IMG/VR virus record: IMGVR_UViG_3300022188_000008
Span: 1 to 64,000 of that record
DNA: 64,000 bases
Direction: 5' to 3' (one strand)
Source of the DNA: a virus
Shown: positions 1,333-47,652 of the stretch, in pieces
Numbering within the stretch: position 1 is the first letter of the stretch
Layout: the number at the start of each line of letters is the position of its first letter
Made by a program: the position numbers and the translations under genes
Notes under the pieces: generated by a model
What the model saw: the letters and a program-made list of their open reading frames with translations, nothing else
The model's database searches: none
What the model was told of the DNA's origin: nothing

Positions 1333-2787
1333 TTAAGGTCTGTTTATCTCATATTTTTTGATGGCTTCTAACATGATCGTATAAGGCGTGAATTCCGAGG
1401 CACTAAATATAGCCTTCAGAATGGAAGTGCTGAAACCAGATACTAATGCTGTATTTTCAACCCTAACTGTTTCAGGAGACCCTGCATAACCAGCAGTGTT
1501 CCAGTAGATTATCTTAGGTCTTTTATACCCAGCTTTATCCCATCTCTTCAATGCTTTGTTTACTTCTGTCTGTACTTCTTTAGGGTTGAAGCATTCCTCG
1601 TCCCAGAAACCCCCTTGTGACAAACCTTCATGAAATTGCATATCTGAAATAATCAATAAACAAGTAGGCATTTGCTCACTAGTGAGATTGAAGAATTTTG
1701 CTGTTTTGAGTATCAAGTCAAGAGCTTTATCAATCCTAGTTCCACCTACTGCACCATCAAATATCTCTCTATTTCTTACTGCTTCTGAAAATTTCATTCC
1801 ATTCCAATCCTTAAAACTACCTTCAGAACAGAATGCAATGAATTTCTTATGGAAAGGATTATCTTCAGGAATCTTGGCAGAACAATATAATGCCATTCCT
1901 ATAGATACATCTACAGCTCTAATAGAGCCAGACACTTGAACACTCATAGAGTATGAAGTATCAGAAATTACGATAATACGCTCTTTGTTACCCTCAAGAT
2001 AATTAGGAAGAGCATCAAATTGGGCATCTGCTATCTCCGTATCTCCACTTCTTACAGTTCTTACACAATCATGGGGGAAAAGCGCAGATGCTTTGATTTC
2101 TACCTTTCCTTTTCTCAAGTCCTCTTTGAATTTCCTGAAGCCTTCCTCATCGTGTTTAGCAAAAGCATTTGTATATCTTGCCATTGCTACAGAAGGCACT
2201 TTAGGATATTCAATCTCTCTCCAGAGGTTAGAACACATTTTATACTCTACAATGTGTTGCTTTCTAATTCTAGAAAGCAATCTTCTCAATCCAGCTTCGT
2301 TAGTATTCAATGCTTTTTGAAGGGGTTTATAATGTCTTTTAGCCCATTTAGCCGCAAGAATATCTTTTTTCTTTATAGCATCTACCCAGAATCTTGCAGC
2401 CTCTTCCTCCAAGTCAGTACCAAATAAAGCCTTCAAATCATCCCATCTTCCATATTCAGGGATTAAATGTAAATTGGCTTCCACCCACTTGTAGTTTGGA
2501 AAATCAAAAGGTAGGCTAGGGTCATAAGTGGCTAACCAATTAATACATTCTCTGAATCCAGATCTATTTCCAGCCCCTCCCCTACAATCTCTCAGCCAGA
2601 AGAGTAGTTTCATGGACAGTTCTTCATCTACTACCCACATTTTCTGAAAGAGAGAAAGAGCTGATTCCTCTGATCCATAAAAAGACTCTCTTTTCTTAAA
2701 AAGAGAACCTGCTTTGGAGAAGAATTCTAAATGATGATTTAAAGAGAAAGGATACTGAGTTCCACCTTCGTGGGTTTTGGAAAACAC
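1333..2787 (-). CDS. Ro60-like protein: DUF2828 helical repeats plus vWA domain
   Basis: A 484-residue protein starting at GTG with CAGGAGG upstream. Residues 1-240 match the DUF2828/TROVE-type helical region (GGTQYPFSLNHHLEFF, FWLRDCRGGAGNR, LIPEYGRWDDL). Residues 270-480 form a von Willebrand A domain with an intact MIDAS: D276-T-S-Y-S280, T350 and D382. Related Ro60/Rsr proteins bind misfolded RNAs and Y RNAs as a ring. The gene lies directly downstream, in the same direction, of a cluster of tRNA-like RNA elements, the arrangement known for bacterial Ro/Y RNA loci. RNA binding here is inferred from family and context. Confidence 0.82.
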   Translation of the reverse strand: MFSKTHEGGTQYPFSLNHHLEFFSKAGSLFKKRESFYGSEESALSLFQKMWVVDEELSMKLLFWLRDCRGGAGNRSGFRECINWLATYDPSLPFDFPNYKWVEANLHLIPEYGRWDDLKALFGTDLEEEAARFWVDAIKKKDILAAKWAKRHYKPLQKALNTNEAGLRRLLSRIRKQHIVEYKMCSNLWREIEYPKVPSVAMARYTNAFAKHDEEGFRKFKEDLRKGKVEIKASALFPHDCVRTVRSGDTEIADAQFDALPNYLEGNKERIIVISDTSYSMSVQVSGSIRAVDVSIGMALYCSAKIPEDNPFHKKFIAFCSEGSFKDWNGMKFSEAVRNREIFDGAVGGTRIDKALDLILKTAKFFNLTSEQMPTCLLIISDMQFHEGLSQGGFWDEECFNPKEVQTEVNKALKRWDKAGYKRPKIIYWNTAGYAGSPETVRVENTALVSGFSTSILKAIFSASEFTPYTIMLEAIKKYEINRP

Positions 2788-2977: not shown

Positions 2978-2987
2978 TATTGTTAAG

Positions 2988-3053
2988 AGCGGGAAGATGG
3001 AATCGAACCATCCTGTTTTTCGGGTAGAAAAACATCTGCCACCCAGTTCCCGC
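2988..3053 (-). tRNA. tRNA-Gly-like gene with shortened D-arm
   Basis: A 66-nt gene with acceptor GCGGGAA/TTCCCGC (the same acceptor strands as I recall for Escherichia coli tRNA-Gly) and U73. It has a canonical T-arm (GATGG, loop TTCGATT, CCATC) and an anticodon arm TTTTT-CTACCCG-AAAAA. The anticodon read from the loop is ACC, unusual for glycine. The D-arm is only 14 nt (CTGGGTGGCAGATG), as if the 5' strand of the D-stem were deleted. No CCA is encoded. It is the most tRNA-like member of the cluster. Confidence 0.6.
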
Positions 3054-20469: not shown

Positions 20470-20649
20470 TTATCGAGGTTTTTTGCCCTCAACTTCCAGG
20501 TCTGTTGAGGGCATCTTTTTTACTTGACTTATTATAGAATTCTTGATATATTTAATAGCGAAATCAGCAACCATACAGTTCACTTCCTTTCTAGCCCTCA
20601 ATTCCCAGTTGAGGGCTTTCTTTTTTTGTTGGCAAAGCAATGTTTCCAT
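20470..20649 (-). CDS. hypothetical small ORF (METLLCQQ...)
   Basis: About 59 residues from the ATG at 20649, which has AGAGGA upstream. The reading frame runs through two strong hairpins (GCCCTCAAC/GTTGAGGGC and AGCCCTCAA/TTGAGGGCT) and contains a second possible start at about 20574, so it may be two leader-like peptides or not translated at all. Confidence 0.35.
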   Translation of the reverse strand: METLLCQQKKKALNWELRARKEVNCMVADFAIKYIKNSIISQVKKMPSTDLEVEGKKPR

Positions 20650-42798: not shown

Positions 42799-42825
42799 AT
42801 TATATATATGCACACACAATGCCAA
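42799..42825 (-). promoter_or_regulatory. possible promoter of the small-gene array
   Basis: TTGGCA and TATAAT with a 15-bp spacer, upstream of the 54-residue gene; overlapping TATATA options would lengthen the spacer. Weaker than the other promoters here. Confidence 0.45.
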
Positions 42826-42829
42826 TTTC

Positions 42830-43500
42830 ATAATTTTTTCATAATTTTTTATTTCTTTAATGATATCGATAACTTAAATTCATATCATGAAAAGTGAAAT
42901 AATTTTATTGCACTTAATTGCTGTAGCATTTATGCAACACTACTAATCATGATTTTTTGTGTTTATTTAATGATAACAATACTTTAGCTTCATAGTATCA
43001 AAAAAACAACAATTGTTGTGTTTTTGCTACTATGTAATTTGTTTCCTATTATTTTCTTCGTTTTTCTCGTGTTTTCTCGTTTTTTGGTTATAAGTTATCA
43101 ATATCATTACATTAATCATTACTAGATTTCTGAAAGTGTACTAGGGAATTTTTTTGAGCATTTCTTGTTTTATTAATGATTACAGCAATTTACAAATACT
43201 TAAATATCGCCAATTATAGCTGATTACAGGCAAATAAATTTTTTATGTTTCATATTTACCACATATGCAAATATTTTATTGCACTCAGAACCAGGTGCAA
43301 TTAATTTATTGCATATATCACGATGATGCTACTATCATAACTGCTATAAAATTATTGCAGTTATATTACATTCTGCAACAATATCATAATTATGATTATG
43401 ATATTATGCTTTTGTGCGTGATTTGACGCAGAATGCTGCAATAAAAGTATTGCAGTTAGTGCAATAAATTTATGGCAGTTCTGAGTGTGGGAAAAAAGTA
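42830..43500. repeat. gene-free AT-rich region with TTTATTGCA motifs and a long inverted repeat
   Basis: No ORF is credible. Motifs TTTATTGCA / TGCAATAAA recur at least six times between 42900 and 43475. CACTCAGAAC (43282-43291) is repeated inverted as GTTCTGAGTG (43478-43487), with GGTGCAATTAAT... inside it similarly mirrored, so a large cruciform or RNA stem is possible. Confidence 0.5.
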
Positions 43501-43554
43501 TGCCAAAATGCCAGGTTTTTTGATAAAAGTGGTGGGGGATGTGCGAGCTAGCTA

Positions 43555-43910
43555 TACATAAAATTCATAACAAAAATTATGATAATTTTTTAATAGTTGT
43601 TATACATAAAATCCATAATTTTTGTTATGATAATTTTTTAACAGTTGTTATACATAAAATTCACAACAATAGTTATAAGTAAAATCCATAACAGAAATTA
43701 TGATGTTTTTCTAATAATTACTATGATAATTTTTTAATAATTACTATAATGTTTTTCTAATAATAGTTATAAAAATCATAATAGTTGTTATGATAATTTT
43801 TTAATAATAGCTATACATAAAATCCATAATAAAAGTTATGATAATTTTTAATAATAACTATAAGTAAAACTCATAACAAAAATCATAATAAAAATTATGA
43901 TACTTTCTTT
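43555..43910. repeat. degenerate tandem array of ATTATGATAATTTTTTAAT / ATACATAAAATCCATAAC units
   Basis: About six imperfect units of roughly 50-60 bp, each combining CATAAAATYCATAAC with (A)TTATGATAATTTTTTAATA and rich in TTATGA/TCATAA palindromes. No genes. It could be an origin, partition or protein-binding array. Confidence 0.55.
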
Positions 43911-44038
43911 CTTCAGATATTAATTATATGTTAATTATAACATTATAGGGACGGGGGATTATTTTCCTTCTTCAGGAAAATTATAAAATGACATTAGGGG
44001 ACTTTTTATGAATTCCTCATTGTTTGTATATTTGAGGT

Positions 44039-45613
44039 TTAAGCATAAATATCCAAATGAATAGTTTTCGGGTATAAAGTACTTTGGTTAGATATTCCAT
44101 ATTCTTGCCTTACTGTATTTACAAGATCTATTACTGCATCTCTTAGATCTATATTTTCTGGATATTCTTTTGGATCTATTTCAGATATACTTCCATTGGG
44201 ATTCTTTCCTACTAATGCAAATGCACGTGGTTCATAATCTTTATAAGTTATTTGACAATCTGGGTCGCCAAACCTGCAAATTGCTCTACAGATATCATCA
44301 TCAACACTGCAATCGGGATCATATTCGGACAGCCAATCTATAAACCCAGTTCCATGAATGGTTTTTATTATGTATGCAGATACAGCTATTACAACAGCAT
44401 AATTGTCACTATAGATTGCTGCTATTGGAGACAATTCACCTGTTCCGGCTTCCTCTTTACTTCTATAAGCGCCATTAAATTGCCATCCTGATGCGGTAAT
44501 ATCTCCAACTATACACTGGCAAATATCAGATTTTTGAAAAATATCATAATCTTGTGGGTATCCTTCAGGATACCAAGATGAGATCTCCTCAAATACTCCC
44601 TCACCAATTACTTTATAATAACCAAGAGTTGCATTAGATTGGAAATTTTGGTCATAGGAATCCTCAGCTTGGCAATCGTGTTGTTGTTCAGTGTAGTTGT
44701 ATATTAAATATAAATTCAAATAAGTTCCGAAGAAATTAAAGGCTGTTTTTTCACGGTATGCATAGACATGAGCATTTATGTCTGCACAACAGTTATTAAA
44801 TTCCCCTCCTTCTTCAAAGTTACAACTTTCTCCAGAAGGCATCCATGTAGTTATATCTTGAGTACAATATTCTACAAAACGTGTAGACCCTGTTTGCAAC
44901 ATCTCACAAGGCATGAACCCAGCTTCATAAGGATACCACATACAAAAACTAATTCCACTCCAATAAGTACATTCGACACCTCCATAAGTACCTCTTTCAA
45001 ATATTAAATATTCTGGAGGACAAGTTTCAGGATGAGATCGAGATAAATATCTAATGGCATTGTCTGTAGTCTCTCGGTATCCTTCAGGGCACAACCCTAT
45101 CCTAGAAAGTCGTGATAAATAGTCGATTAAGATCGGGTCTTGGCTAGAGCAAGGAAAGGTTAGTTTTGGGATATCTACGTAATCATTCAATTCTAAATCC
45201 CATAATATAACATAACCATCTATATCTATCTTTAAGATTTCACCACATCTCTTTATTTTATCAGGAAATCCTACACAATAATACTCCCCATTTACAGCAT
45301 ATATCAATACTTTATCATTAACATGAAATGCTGATGCTGGATCTAAGTTCTCAGATTGGCAATTATATATAATCTTAGCACCTGATATCTCAGTTATAGG
45401 CTCTATATCTAAGTGTTCATATTTCTTGTGCTTCTCCAGCTTTCCATAATCAGTTTCATAGTTCCTAGGATAATAAGGTTCATCTAATACAACATCTACA
45501 GTCTTATTATCTCTATCTACTGATGTTATTGTTCCTTCTATAACATCATGCATCAGGACTGCTTCTGCAGGATCTAATTGTATTGTATAAGGATTTTCAG
45601 TGCTTTTTGGCAT
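44039..45613 (-). CDS. isolated Cys-rich protein, possibly virion-associated
   Basis: 524 residues, with more than 25 cysteines, many aromatic residues and few lysines in the middle. Residues 20-130 look like small beta barrels (EGTITSVDRDNKTVDVVLDEPYY; HVNDKVLIYAVNGEYYCVGFP), as in phage baseplate or spike OB domains. The middle has tail-fibre-like composition. It stands alone between two non-coding regions and has its own promoter, so its expression is separate from both arms. Function unknown. Confidence 0.72.
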   Translation of the reverse strand: MPKSTENPYTIQLDPAEAVLMHDVIEGTITSVDRDNKTVDVVLDEPYYPRNYETDYGKLEKHKKYEHLDIEPITEISGAKIIYNCQSENLDPASAFHVNDKVLIYAVNGEYYCVGFPDKIKRCGEILKIDIDGYVILWDLELNDYVDIPKLTFPCSSQDPILIDYLSRLSRIGLCPEGYRETTDNAIRYLSRSHPETCPPEYLIFERGTYGGVECTYWSGISFCMWYPYEAGFMPCEMLQTGSTRFVEYCTQDITTWMPSGESCNFEEGGEFNNCCADINAHVYAYREKTAFNFFGTYLNLYLIYNYTEQQHDCQAEDSYDQNFQSNATLGYYKVIGEGVFEEISSWYPEGYPQDYDIFQKSDICQCIVGDITASGWQFNGAYRSKEEAGTGELSPIAAIYSDNYAVVIAVSAYIIKTIHGTGFIDWLSEYDPDCSVDDDICRAICRFGDPDCQITYKDYEPRAFALVGKNPNGSISEIDPKEYPENIDLRDAVIDLVNTVRQEYGISNQSTLYPKTIHLDIYA

Positions 45614-45638
45614 ATTTCAGATACCTCTTTTTTAGGGA

Positions 45639-45668
45639 ATAGTATTTTACTCTTAATGCTAAAGTCAA
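45639..45668 (-). promoter_or_regulatory. promoter of the Cys-rich gene
   Basis: TTGACT, 18-bp spacer, TACTAT on the minus strand, about 26 bp upstream of the GTG/ATG region of the gene. Its -35 lies 9 bp from the -35 of the plus-strand promoter, forming a compact divergent pair. Confidence 0.65.
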
Positions 45669-45676
45669 GTTAGGAG

Positions 45677-45705
45677 TTGAAAATGAGAATCTGATGAGGT
45701 ATAAT
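45677..45705 (+). promoter_or_regulatory. promoter of the structured non-coding RNA
   Basis: TTGAAA, 17-bp spacer, TATAAT; transcription would begin near 45712, 9 nt before the first long helix. Confidence 0.75.
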
Positions 45706-45711
45706 AGAGAA

Positions 45712-46495
45712 CATGAGTACGTTAGTAGTAAAAACAATTGCAGATGGGGTTGATACCTTTAATAAAAAAAGAGCTGCTACAGGTATCTGCAACAGCTCCT
45801 TGACAAAAAAAGGTAGAAAAACCCTGGGAGAAAGACTGGTGAGGTCAGTACCGGACCCAGTTCGCCCTTCCCAGGTCGTCTGCAATCATACTAACATCTC
45901 TTATATTAATTGTCAAGGAGTTTTTGCACAGGGTGGATGCGGTACTGTTGCCAAATCAGGGGTTGACCGGAGTTGGAGGATTTCCTCTAAAAGGGCGCTC
46001 CTGGGTTGGAATAAACCCGATAAACAGCCTATACGACGGATAATGCAATCCTTCAATTATAATTATAAGAGTAGTACGGTTACTGCTGAGACCGAAACAG
46101 CAGGACAGAGCGCTTGGCCTTGCGATAATAGGCGGCTGATAAAGCGATACTCCTGTTTACCTGAAGTTTTCCTGCCTTTCTCTTCAGGGTTTGTCTTTTT
46201 GCTTCTGGAATCATCTCTTAGAGGTTGCATAAATGCAGCTTTTAAACAACTAAGAGATGTATACAATAAGAGTATAAATATAGATCATAATAAAATTATG
46301 ATTTATAAATTATGGGCATTGTCAATCGCTCTACTACTAACTACACAAAATGCCCATAAATGGATATACATCTACATTCTGTAGATGTATATGCTGACGC
46401 ATTCTATCTTATTGTATTATCCAGAGGTATAACGCCCGAAGTATACTCTTAGAATGAGGATACCTAATAATAGCCTATTATTAGGTATTTTATTA
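45712..46495 (+). ncRNA. large ornate structured RNA (about 0.78 kb)
   Basis: A transcription unit with its own promoter and terminator, markedly richer in G+C than its AT-rich flanks. Perfect helices include 45721-45727/45889-45895, 45737-45744/45879-45886, 45752-45758/45781-45787, 45771-45776/45793-45798, 45796-45805/45911-45920, 45823-45829/45869-45875, 45846-45853/45940-45947, 46083-46088/46098-46103, 46160-46166/46182-46188, 46212-46221/46250-46259, 46312-46320/46349-46357 and 46364-46375/46381-46392. Several cross, giving pseudoknots. Size, phage context and complexity resemble the ROOL and GOLLD classes; membership was not tested. Confidence 0.75.
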
Positions 46496-46500
46496 TATTT
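46462..46500 (+). terminator. intrinsic terminator of the structured RNA
   Basis: ACCTAATAA/TTATTAGGT stem (extendable to 12 bp) followed by ATTTTATTATATTT. Confidence 0.75.
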
Positions 46501-46506
46501 GAGGGG

Positions 46507-46534
46507 TTGACAAAGTTCGAATTTATAGTATTAG
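46507..46534 (+). promoter_or_regulatory. late-arm promoter 1
   Basis: TTGACA, 16-bp spacer, TATTAG, upstream of the HTH/terminase arm. Confidence 0.65.
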
Positions 46535-46543
46535 GGATAATGA

Positions 46544-46601: not shown

Positions 46602-47105
46602 ATGAATTTTGATGTTGATATATATAAAGAAGAGAAAAAAGATAAATCCCTTCCTCAAGTAGTAAGGTTGGGAAAAGTTAAATTAATGCTAGATAAAGGA
46701 CATTCTGTTGCAGAAATTGCTGAGAAATTAGGTATCAGCAAAACTACTGTATATAAAGATGTGCAGTTTTTAAAAAATATAGAAATAGGGGGTATTGATG
46801 AAGAAACGAAAAATTTAAGAAGAATAGAGATAGACGAAGAAATACTAAATCAAATAAAAATAGGTAAAGAGATTATTGAGCTTCATATGTATAAAAAACC
46901 CCATGTTGTAGGGGATATTATGAAAGTTATTTGCAATCTGTTAGAGCTAAGAATGAAATTATGGAAAATGGATGCTCAAACAGTATTATCTGCTTCAGAA
47001 ACAGTACTTGATGGTGAAGAATTATTGCCTGAAGATGTTAAAGATCAGATAGGGGATATGCTAGTAAAACACCTAAGCAAAAAAGAGGTGAAAATAAGTG
47101 TCTAA
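46602..47105 (+). CDS. HTH protein, possible small terminase subunit
   Basis: 167 residues with a clear helix-turn-helix at about 38-60 (GHSVAEIAEKLGISKTTVYKDVQFLK), then a helical oligomerisation-like region and acidic C-terminus. Its position as first gene of the packaging/structural arm and its size fit TerS; a transcription factor is the alternative. Overlaps the next gene by 8 nt. Confidence 0.65.
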   Translation: MNFDVDIYKEEKKDKSLPQVVRLGKVKLMLDKGHSVAEIAEKLGISKTTVYKDVQFLKNIEIGGIDEETKNLRRIEIDEEILNQIKIGKEIIELHMYKKPHVVGDIMKVICNLLELRMKLWKMDAQTVLSASETVLDGEELLPEDVKDQIGDMLVKHLSKKEVKISV

Positions 47106-47634
47106 AAAATACAATATTATCTATGTAGATCCTCCTTGGCCTATAAAACTAATATCAAGAAAGGTGAGACCAAAGCAACTTGATATGCCTTATAGTGTTA
47201 TGACATATGAAGACATATGCAACTTACCTGTGCAGAATATTTGTGACAAAAACGAATGCCATTTATTTCTATGGACAACTCATAAGTGGCTGCCTAAAGC
47301 ATTTTATGTGATGGAATGTTGGGGTTTTAAGTATAATTGCATAATAACTTGGGACAAAACATATGGTTTTACACCATTTAGTTTTATGTGGAGTACAGAG
47401 TTTTTGTTATATGGACAATTGAAAGGGAAATGGAAAAGGCCAAGAGGGGTAGGCAAATTCAAAACATGTTATCAGCATAAGCCAATAGGACACAGCATAA
47501 AACCTCATCTTTTCAGGCAGGTTATTGTAGGATTTTGTGGTGATTTGCCACGTATCGAGCTTTTTGCTCGACAGAAAACACTAGGATGGGATGTGTGGGG
47601 GAACGAGGTAGAATCAGATATAGAGCTAATATGA
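47098..47634 (+). CDS. MT-A70 family adenine methyltransferase
   Basis: 178 residues from GTG with AAAGAGG upstream. The catalytic DPPW is at residues 11-14, with the family's HLFLWTTHKWLP, CIITWDKT and the C-terminal PRIELFAR segment. It would make N6-methyladenine in DNA, probably to evade host restriction; no restriction partner is visible. Confidence 0.9.
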   Translation: MSKKYNIIYVDPPWPIKLISRKVRPKQLDMPYSVMTYEDICNLPVQNICDKNECHLFLWTTHKWLPKAFYVMECWGFKYNCIITWDKTYGFTPFSFMWSTEFLLYGQLKGKWKRPRGVGKFKTCYQHKPIGHSIKPHLFRQVIVGFCGDLPRIELFARQKTLGWDVWGNEVESDIELI

Positions 47635-47652
47635 GGAAGGAGGTGAAAGTAA

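What the first reader, a model, noticed from the sequence alone, without database searches (positions are those of the whole stretch)
45706..46500. Large, pseudoknotted phage RNA with its own promoter and terminator
Seen: a plus-strand promoter, about 780 nt without credible coding, a terminator, and at least twelve perfect 6-12 bp helices. Two sets cross: 45752-45758/45781-45787 with 45771-45776/45793-45798, and 45823-45829/45875 with 45846-45853/45947. The 10-bp helix 45796-45805/45911-45920 also crosses the outer 45721-45727/45895 stem. Known: ROOL and GOLLD are phage-linked ornate RNAs of 0.5-0.9 kb, some of which assemble into RNA-only multimers. Inference: this is a member of, or analogous to, those classes.
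Basis: partly seen in the sequence, partly recalled or inferred. Interest (0 to 1): 0.9.

Follow-up and report, generated by a model that had tools for sequence, protein, structure and literature searches.

The report
Orphan large phage RNA with antisense
A little-known bacteriophage carries a self-contained cassette of about 0.8 kb that, by sequence analysis, makes a large folded RNA and, from the opposite strand, a short antisense RNA; it matches no known RNA family and is missing from the phage's nearest relative, so it looks like a new optional RNA gene of unknown function.

Summary
The structure is real but the filing is not. The plus-strand region 45706-46500 has an 11/12 sigma70-type promoter (45677-45705), folds far better than dinucleotide shuffles (z about -9 to -9.7), and holds 10 perfect helices of at least 10 bp where shuffles give 0.4. 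No Rfam family matches even at E<5, so ROOL and GOLLD membership fails and only an analogy remains. No homologue was found, so covariation cannot be tested. A colinear relative (TerL 95% identical) has the same flanking genes but lacks the block: a discrete cassette, 45649-46538. (1) On the minus strand, an extended -10 promoter (45916-45888) and the phage's strongest intrinsic terminator (45801-45768) frame a ~115-nt antisense RNA across the large RNA's 5' domain. (2) One plus frame is stop-free for 223 codons (0 of 7,000 shuffles), though without phage codon usage, clear periodicity, homologues or a confident fold. Best reading: an accessory, antisense-controlled large structured phage ncRNA, comparable to the orphan ~800-nt ncRNA of phage ICP1. 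Coding remains a live rival.

The parts
45649..46538 (.). cassette present here and absent from the colinear relative G001 (about 48 nt there)
   Evidence: blastn homology stops at 45648 and resumes at 46539 (alignments)
45677..45705 (+). promoter of the large RNA, TTGAAA-17-TATAAT; predicted start near 45712
   Evidence: 11 of 12 consensus positions; start position inferred
45712..46500 (+). large structured RNA, about 0.79 kb
   Evidence: fold z -9.0 / -9.66; helix surplus; transcription not tested
45721..45895 (+). 5' domain (closing stem 45721-45727/45889-45895, then 45737-45747/45876-45886)
   Evidence: MFE stems with mean pair probability 0.91 and 0.92
45846..45947 (+). candidate pseudoknot 45846-45853/45940-45947, 8 bp, between a 5'-domain hairpin loop and the central part
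   Evidence: perfect complementarity; helices of this length are partly expected by chance
45721..46341 (+). candidate long-range helix 45721-45730/46332-46341, 10 bp, 5' end to a 3' hairpin loop; competes with 45721-45727/45889-45895
   Evidence: perfect complementarity
45916..46450 (+). central and 3' domain, including hairpins 45958-46002, 46099-46157 and 46160-46188
   Evidence: MFE; plus strand favoured over minus in 45931-46491, z -7.8 against -4.0
46200..46429 (+). 3' subdomain of long AU-rich hairpins closed by 46200-46209/46420-46429
   Evidence: z -9.7 on plus for 46200-46450; stems
46457..46500 (+). terminator-like hairpin and U-rich tail of the large RNA
   Evidence: 16 bp, -15 kcal/mol, only 2 G-C pairs; not called by the consensus scan
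45888..45916 (-). antisense promoter, TTGACA-17-TAGTAT with extended -10 (TG)
   Evidence: 10 of 12
45762..45881 (-). predicted antisense RNA, about 115-120 nt, complementary to most of the 5' domain
   Evidence: lies between the minus-strand promoter and terminator; fold z -4.6; transcription not tested
45768..45801 (-). antisense intrinsic terminator, 15-bp stem followed by a T-tract
   Evidence: -22 kcal/mol on minus against -11.2 on plus; longest terminator stem found in the 95 kb
45713..46384 (+). stop-free 223-codon frame, unexplained; alternative GTG start at 45839 behind GGGAG
   Evidence: 0 of 2,000 dinucleotide and 0 of 5,000 block shuffles as long; no coding signature; no homologue; start sites

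Best explanation
The cassette is an accessory RNA gene of the phage. A sigma70-type promoter makes a ~0.79-kb, highly structured plus-strand RNA that probably works as RNA rather than as a message. An opposing promoter makes a ~115-nt antisense RNA, ended by a strong intrinsic terminator, that can pair with most of the large RNA's 5' domain. Pairing would block folding of that domain or expose the duplex to RNase III, and so limit the amount or timing of the large RNA, much as RNA I acts on RNA II in ColE1 plasmids (analogy from general knowledge). Shown by computation: the structure, both promoters, the antisense terminator, and presence or absence as a unit. Inferred: transcription, non-coding action, antisense control. 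The most likely role is that of an abundant, non-essential structural RNA made during lytic growth, like the ICP1 ncRNA, ROOL and GOLLD; this last step is weakly supported (about 0.2 on its own).
For: Promoter 11/12; fold z -9.0 and -9.66; 10 helices of >=10 bp against 0.4 expected; plus-strand preference of 45931-46491, 15 against 6 G-U pairs; minus-strand promoter and terminator 120 nt apart, one of two such pairs in 95 kb, with the longest terminator stem; minus-strand preference of exactly that hairpin; the whole block is absent from the colinear relative with both flanking genes kept; no protein family match to the open frame; precedent of the ICP1 ncRNA.
Against: No homologue, so no covariation. 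Transcription is not shown for either strand. The stop-free 223-codon frame is not expected of a non-coding RNA; the ICP1 ncRNA has at most 42 codons in sense. The central part has little surplus structure (z -2.2), and the 3' terminator is weak.
Confidence: 0.5

Rival explanations
1. It is a messenger: the 223-codon frame (ATG 45713 at the predicted transcription start, leaderless, or GTG 45839 behind a GGGAG site) encodes an orphan protein, and the antisense RNA represses it.
For: The frame is longer than in any of 2,000 dinucleotide or 5,000 block shuffles; ATG at the predicted start; GTG 45839 with a Shine-Dalgarno-like GGGAG.
Against: Codon log-odds -0.10 per codon against +0.02 to +0.17 for 18 phage genes; periodicity p=0.053; no Pfam, PHROG or NCBIfam match and no tblastn match in phages or plasmids; AlphaFold pLDDT 36 from a single sequence; perfect 11-13 bp hairpins inside the frame.
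Confidence: 0.17
2. There is no functional large RNA: the block is an intergenic patchwork of AT-rich hairpins and promoter or terminator elements, in which only the small antisense unit may be real.
For: Surplus structure is concentrated in 46200-46450 and small in the centre; another AT-rich intergenic stretch (42801-43595, minus) also reaches z -9.2, on 8 shuffles; the 3' terminator is weak; no homologue.
Against: 11/12 promoter, strand-asymmetric G-U pairs favouring plus, helix surplus over the whole, GC content above the genome in 45701-46200.
Confidence: 0.12
3. It is a type I toxin-antitoxin locus: a long structured toxin mRNA with a cis-antisense antitoxin RNA.
For: Antisense RNA over the 5' part; possible 5'-3' long-range pairing; a hydrophobic 28-codon frame at 46298-46384 (from the translation).
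Against: That short frame has no Shine-Dalgarno site among the starts listed, overlaps perfect 11-13 bp hairpins, and has no family match. The RNA is longer than usual type I mRNAs (general knowledge).
Confidence: 0.1
4. It is an RNA-primed replication element of ColE1 type captured from a plasmid: the large RNA is a primer and the small one its RNA I.
For: Geometry: ~115-nt antisense near the 5' end of a long structured RNA; position at the GC-skew minimum.
Against: No Rfam RNAI match; G001 keeps the same gene layout without the cassette, so it is not the phage's necessary origin; the skew switch follows gene orientation; no plasmid match.
Confidence: 0.06
5. It is a strongly diverged member of a known large RNA class (ROOL, GOLLD or another) that Rfam models cannot reach.
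For: Size, phage setting and complex fold are similar; [quoted passage not shown]
Against: No match at E<5 with permissive filters, and no tRNA gene in the 95 kb nearer than 2987-3053 within the window.
Confidence: 0.05

Closest known systems
ICP1 ~800-nt ncRNA between gp139 and gp140 (Vibrio phage ICP1; PMC7567579)
   Same: Phage, ~0.8 kb, in an ORF-less gap, not next to tRNAs, no Rfam gathering-level match
   Different: No meaningful sequence similarity (one 38-nt match on the opposite strand); fold z only -3.0 and longest sense frame 42 codons for the 1.0-kb ICP1 gap; expression is documented for ICP1 only
ROOL RNA (RF03087)
   Same: Phage or prophage origin, size class, complex fold with pseudoknots (PMC12286853)
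   Different: No Rfam match; not near a tRNA island; multimerisation untested
GOLLD RNA (RF01998)
   Same: Phage or prophage origin, ~0.8 kb (PMC12286853)
   Different: No Rfam match; lacks the conserved 3' region as modelled by Rfam; not near tRNAs
ColE1 RNA II / RNA I (from general knowledge)
   Same: Long structured sense RNA with a ~110-nt antisense RNA near its 5' end
   Different: No Rfam RNAI match; no evidence of an origin; cassette absent from a relative with the same gene layout

Membership tests
ROOL (RF03087) | match to the Rfam covariance model | tested here: not met
   none at gathering score nor at E<5
ROOL (RF03087) | often near tRNA islands in phages or prophages | tested here: not met
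   single tRNA-Gly in the window, 2987-3053, more than 40 kb away; not a strict requirement
ROOL (RF03087) | homo-octameric RNA nanocage | not testable with these tools
   needs purified RNA; PMC12286853
GOLLD (RF01998) | match to the Rfam covariance model, conserved 3' region | tested here: not met
   none at gathering score nor at E<5
GOLLD (RF01998) | expression rises during phage lysis | not testable with these tools
   no transcript data; the property is reported in PMC12286853
Large structured phage ncRNA (general kind) | fold more stable than shuffles, long ORF-poor stretch with its own promoter | tested here: inconclusive
   fold and promoter met; but one frame is stop-free for 223 codons
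Large structured phage ncRNA (general kind) | covariation across homologues | not testable with these tools
   no homologue found
ColE1-type RNA I/RNA II | antisense RNA of ~110 nt with own promoter and terminator over the 5' part of the sense RNA | tested here: met
   sequence signals only
ColE1-type RNA I/RNA II | sequence family match (Rfam RNAI) or replication from the cassette | tested here: not met
   no Rfam match; replication itself not testable here
Type I toxin-antitoxin | small hydrophobic toxin frame with a ribosome-binding site | tested here: not met
   the hydrophobic 28-codon frame at 46298-46384 is not among starts with a Shine-Dalgarno site

The most novel reading that the evidence does not exclude
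A new class of large phage RNA whose folding or abundance is controlled by a dedicated cis-antisense RNA nested in its 5' domain, and which also keeps one frame free of stops (a dual RNA/coding molecule).
Probability: 0.15. Interest if true: 0.85.

Novelty: new variant of a known kind. Interest (0 to 1): 0.55.

Why it matters
Large phage RNAs such as ROOL, GOLLD and the ICP1 transcript can be abundant, and their function is unknown. A further orphan class, on a cassette that one of two closely related phages lacks and with its own antisense regulator, would give a natural with/without comparison and a built-in handle for switching the RNA off. The long stop-free frame inside a strongly folded RNA is also worth explaining.

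Tried and rejected
Rfam at gathering score and at E<5: nothing relevant. blastn against phages and plasmids: only short weak matches; the MT836235.1 match is a terminator-type hairpin. Exact-pattern scans: 0, 0 and 1 hit in viral contigs (the one hit, L014, is coding), 0 and 89 in genomes (the best, L163, is coding, 416-codon NusA-like frame), 34 in viral contigs (no extended homology). blastn over about 800 genomes of two phyla gave only ~30-nt matches; the genomes drawn may not include the host. A TerL-alignment scan found no intermediate relatives, best about 35-37% identity. A ROOL control search rang nowhere, so it says nothing. An apparent 64% similarity of 46261-46419 to a RuvC-like gene was set aside as an AT-rich effect: shuffles reach 43-45 bits against 38.6 in this phage and 47.9 in G001. 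Two whole-genome fold scans timed out and were replaced by a 12-window baseline. A fold of the 223-codon product was uninformative.

Full report
Setting. The window is part of a 95,305-bp IMG/VR phage record with terminase, portal, scaffold, head-protein, polymerase and helicase genes. The region lies between a minus-strand 524-codon gene (44039-45613) and a plus-strand HTH-protein gene (46602-47105), at the point where gene strand and GC skew switch.

Observation. The promoter at 45677-45705 matches 11 of 12 consensus positions. Every helix tested from the finding pairs perfectly. The 795-nt plus strand folds at -256.2 kcal/mol, z -9.0 on 20 shuffles and -9.66 on a fresh 20. Eight other plus-strand windows of the phage give +0.6 to -5.4; of four minus-strand windows one AT-rich intergenic stretch (42801-43595) reaches -9.2 on 8 shuffles, so the value is exceptional but not unique. 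Perfect helices of >=10 bp number 10 against 0.4 expected, >=8 bp 20 against 5.2. The surplus is greatest at 46200-46450 (z -9.7) and small in the centre (z -2.2). The crossing helices are real as complementarity, but those of 6-8 bp are individually within what chance supplies. The 10-bp pair 45721-45730/46332-46341 would tie the 5' end to a 3' hairpin loop and competes with 45721-45727/45889-45895.

Strand. G-U pairs tell the strands apart, because a G-U pair on one strand is an A-C mismatch on the other. In 45931-46491 the plus strand wins: z -7.8 against -4.0, 15 against 6 G-U pairs. At 45762-45801 the minus strand wins: 15 pairs and -22.0 kcal/mol against 9 pairs and -11.2. That minus-strand hairpin runs into a T-tract and ends 120 nt downstream of TTGACA-17-TAGTAT with an extended -10. 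A scan of the 95 kb for a >=10/12 promoter followed within 350 nt by a strong terminator finds only two pairs, and this one has the longest terminator stem of all found. The predicted ~115-120-nt antisense RNA folds well itself (z -4.6) and covers most of the large RNA's 5' domain.

Cassette. The relative G001 (IMGVR_UViG_3300021467_000006; TerL 95% identical; HTH protein 86%) is colinear at 67-95% DNA identity in the aligned blocks. Homology stops at 45648 and resumes at 46539, with about 48 nt between in G001, and the RNA is nowhere else in G001: only short matches. With GC of 0.42-0.48 in 45701-46200 against about 0.33 around it, it behaves like an optional cassette. Which phage gained or lost it is not decided by two genomes.

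Coding. One plus frame, 45713-46384, has no stop for 223 codons; its ATG sits at the predicted transcription start. None of 2,000 dinucleotide shuffles (maximum 161) or 5,000 block shuffles (maximum 202) has a frame as long as the observed 225 codons, stop to stop, inside the region. Yet codon log-odds are -0.10 per codon against +0.02 to +0.17 for 18 phage genes, periodicity is p=0.053, there is no family or tblastn match, and a single-sequence AlphaFold model has pLDDT 36 (weak evidence without an alignment). A recently acquired gene with foreign codon usage is not excluded. I leave the open frame as unexplained.

Identity. No Rfam family matches. Homologue searches were all empty, so covariation cannot be tested. 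Exact-pattern scans are insensitive to diverged RNAs, and records very near the window may be left out by the tools. As a yardstick I took the ICP1 ~800-nt ncRNA, described as the most abundant ICP1 transcript and compared by its authors to GOLLD and ROOL in length (PMC7567579). The 1.0-kb gap that holds it gets no Rfam gathering-level hit, folds at z -3.0 on the strand of the flanking genes and has a longest frame of 42 codons there. A large orphan phage ncRNA therefore has a documented precedent, and such an RNA need not match Rfam or lie near tRNAs.

Mechanism. Most likely the plus RNA acts as RNA and the antisense RNA sets its level or folding by pairing with the 5' domain (confidence 0.5 for this whole; shown: sequence signals and predicted structure; inferred: expression and control). 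A scaffold-like or multimeric role, as for ROOL and GOLLD (PMC12286853), is the favoured function but rests on analogy only. Rivals: orphan mRNA (0.17), no functional large RNA (0.12), type I toxin-antitoxin (0.10), RNA-primed origin (0.06), diverged known class (0.05).

Procedure.

Noticed in passing
47104-47636: A second block absent from G001: the MT-A70-family methyltransferase gene (47098-47634) interrupts otherwise colinear sequence 0.6 kb from the RNA cassette.
   Followed up: partly
20524-20617, plus strand: The only other close promoter-terminator pair in the 95 kb (extended -10, 11-bp stem, 65 nt apart), in a ~1.1-kb ORF-poor gap between minus-strand genes: a possible small RNA.
   Followed up: no
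42801-44030: AT-rich intergenic stretch (GC 0.24 in 43001-44000) with many related palindromic repeats (CATAAT...ATTATGAT type), minus-strand fold z -9.2 on 8 shuffles; partly shared with G001 and next to the GC-skew minimum, so a better candidate origin than the cassette.
   Followed up: partly
1333-2787, minus strand: Protein with DUF2828 and DUF7788 domains (PHROG 850, 'RNA-binding protein'), with tRNA-Gly just beyond it at 2987-3053; a conceivable protein partner of a phage RNA, untested.
   Followed up: partly
45615-45626 and 45781-45792: The start region of the minus-strand gene 44039-45613 (AGAGGTATCTGAAATATG) shares AGGTATCTG with the large RNA, and is therefore complementary to 9 nt of the antisense RNA's terminator hairpin; possible regulation in trans, or chance.
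   Followed up: no
45788-45806 and 45910-45928: 19-nt inverted repeat, 89% complementary, 103 nt apart, each arm holding TTGACA in opposite orientation; one of them is the antisense -35 box.
   Followed up: partly
45713-46384: Stop-free plus-strand frame of 223 codons in a strongly folded RNA, without codon signature; unexplained.
   Followed up: yes
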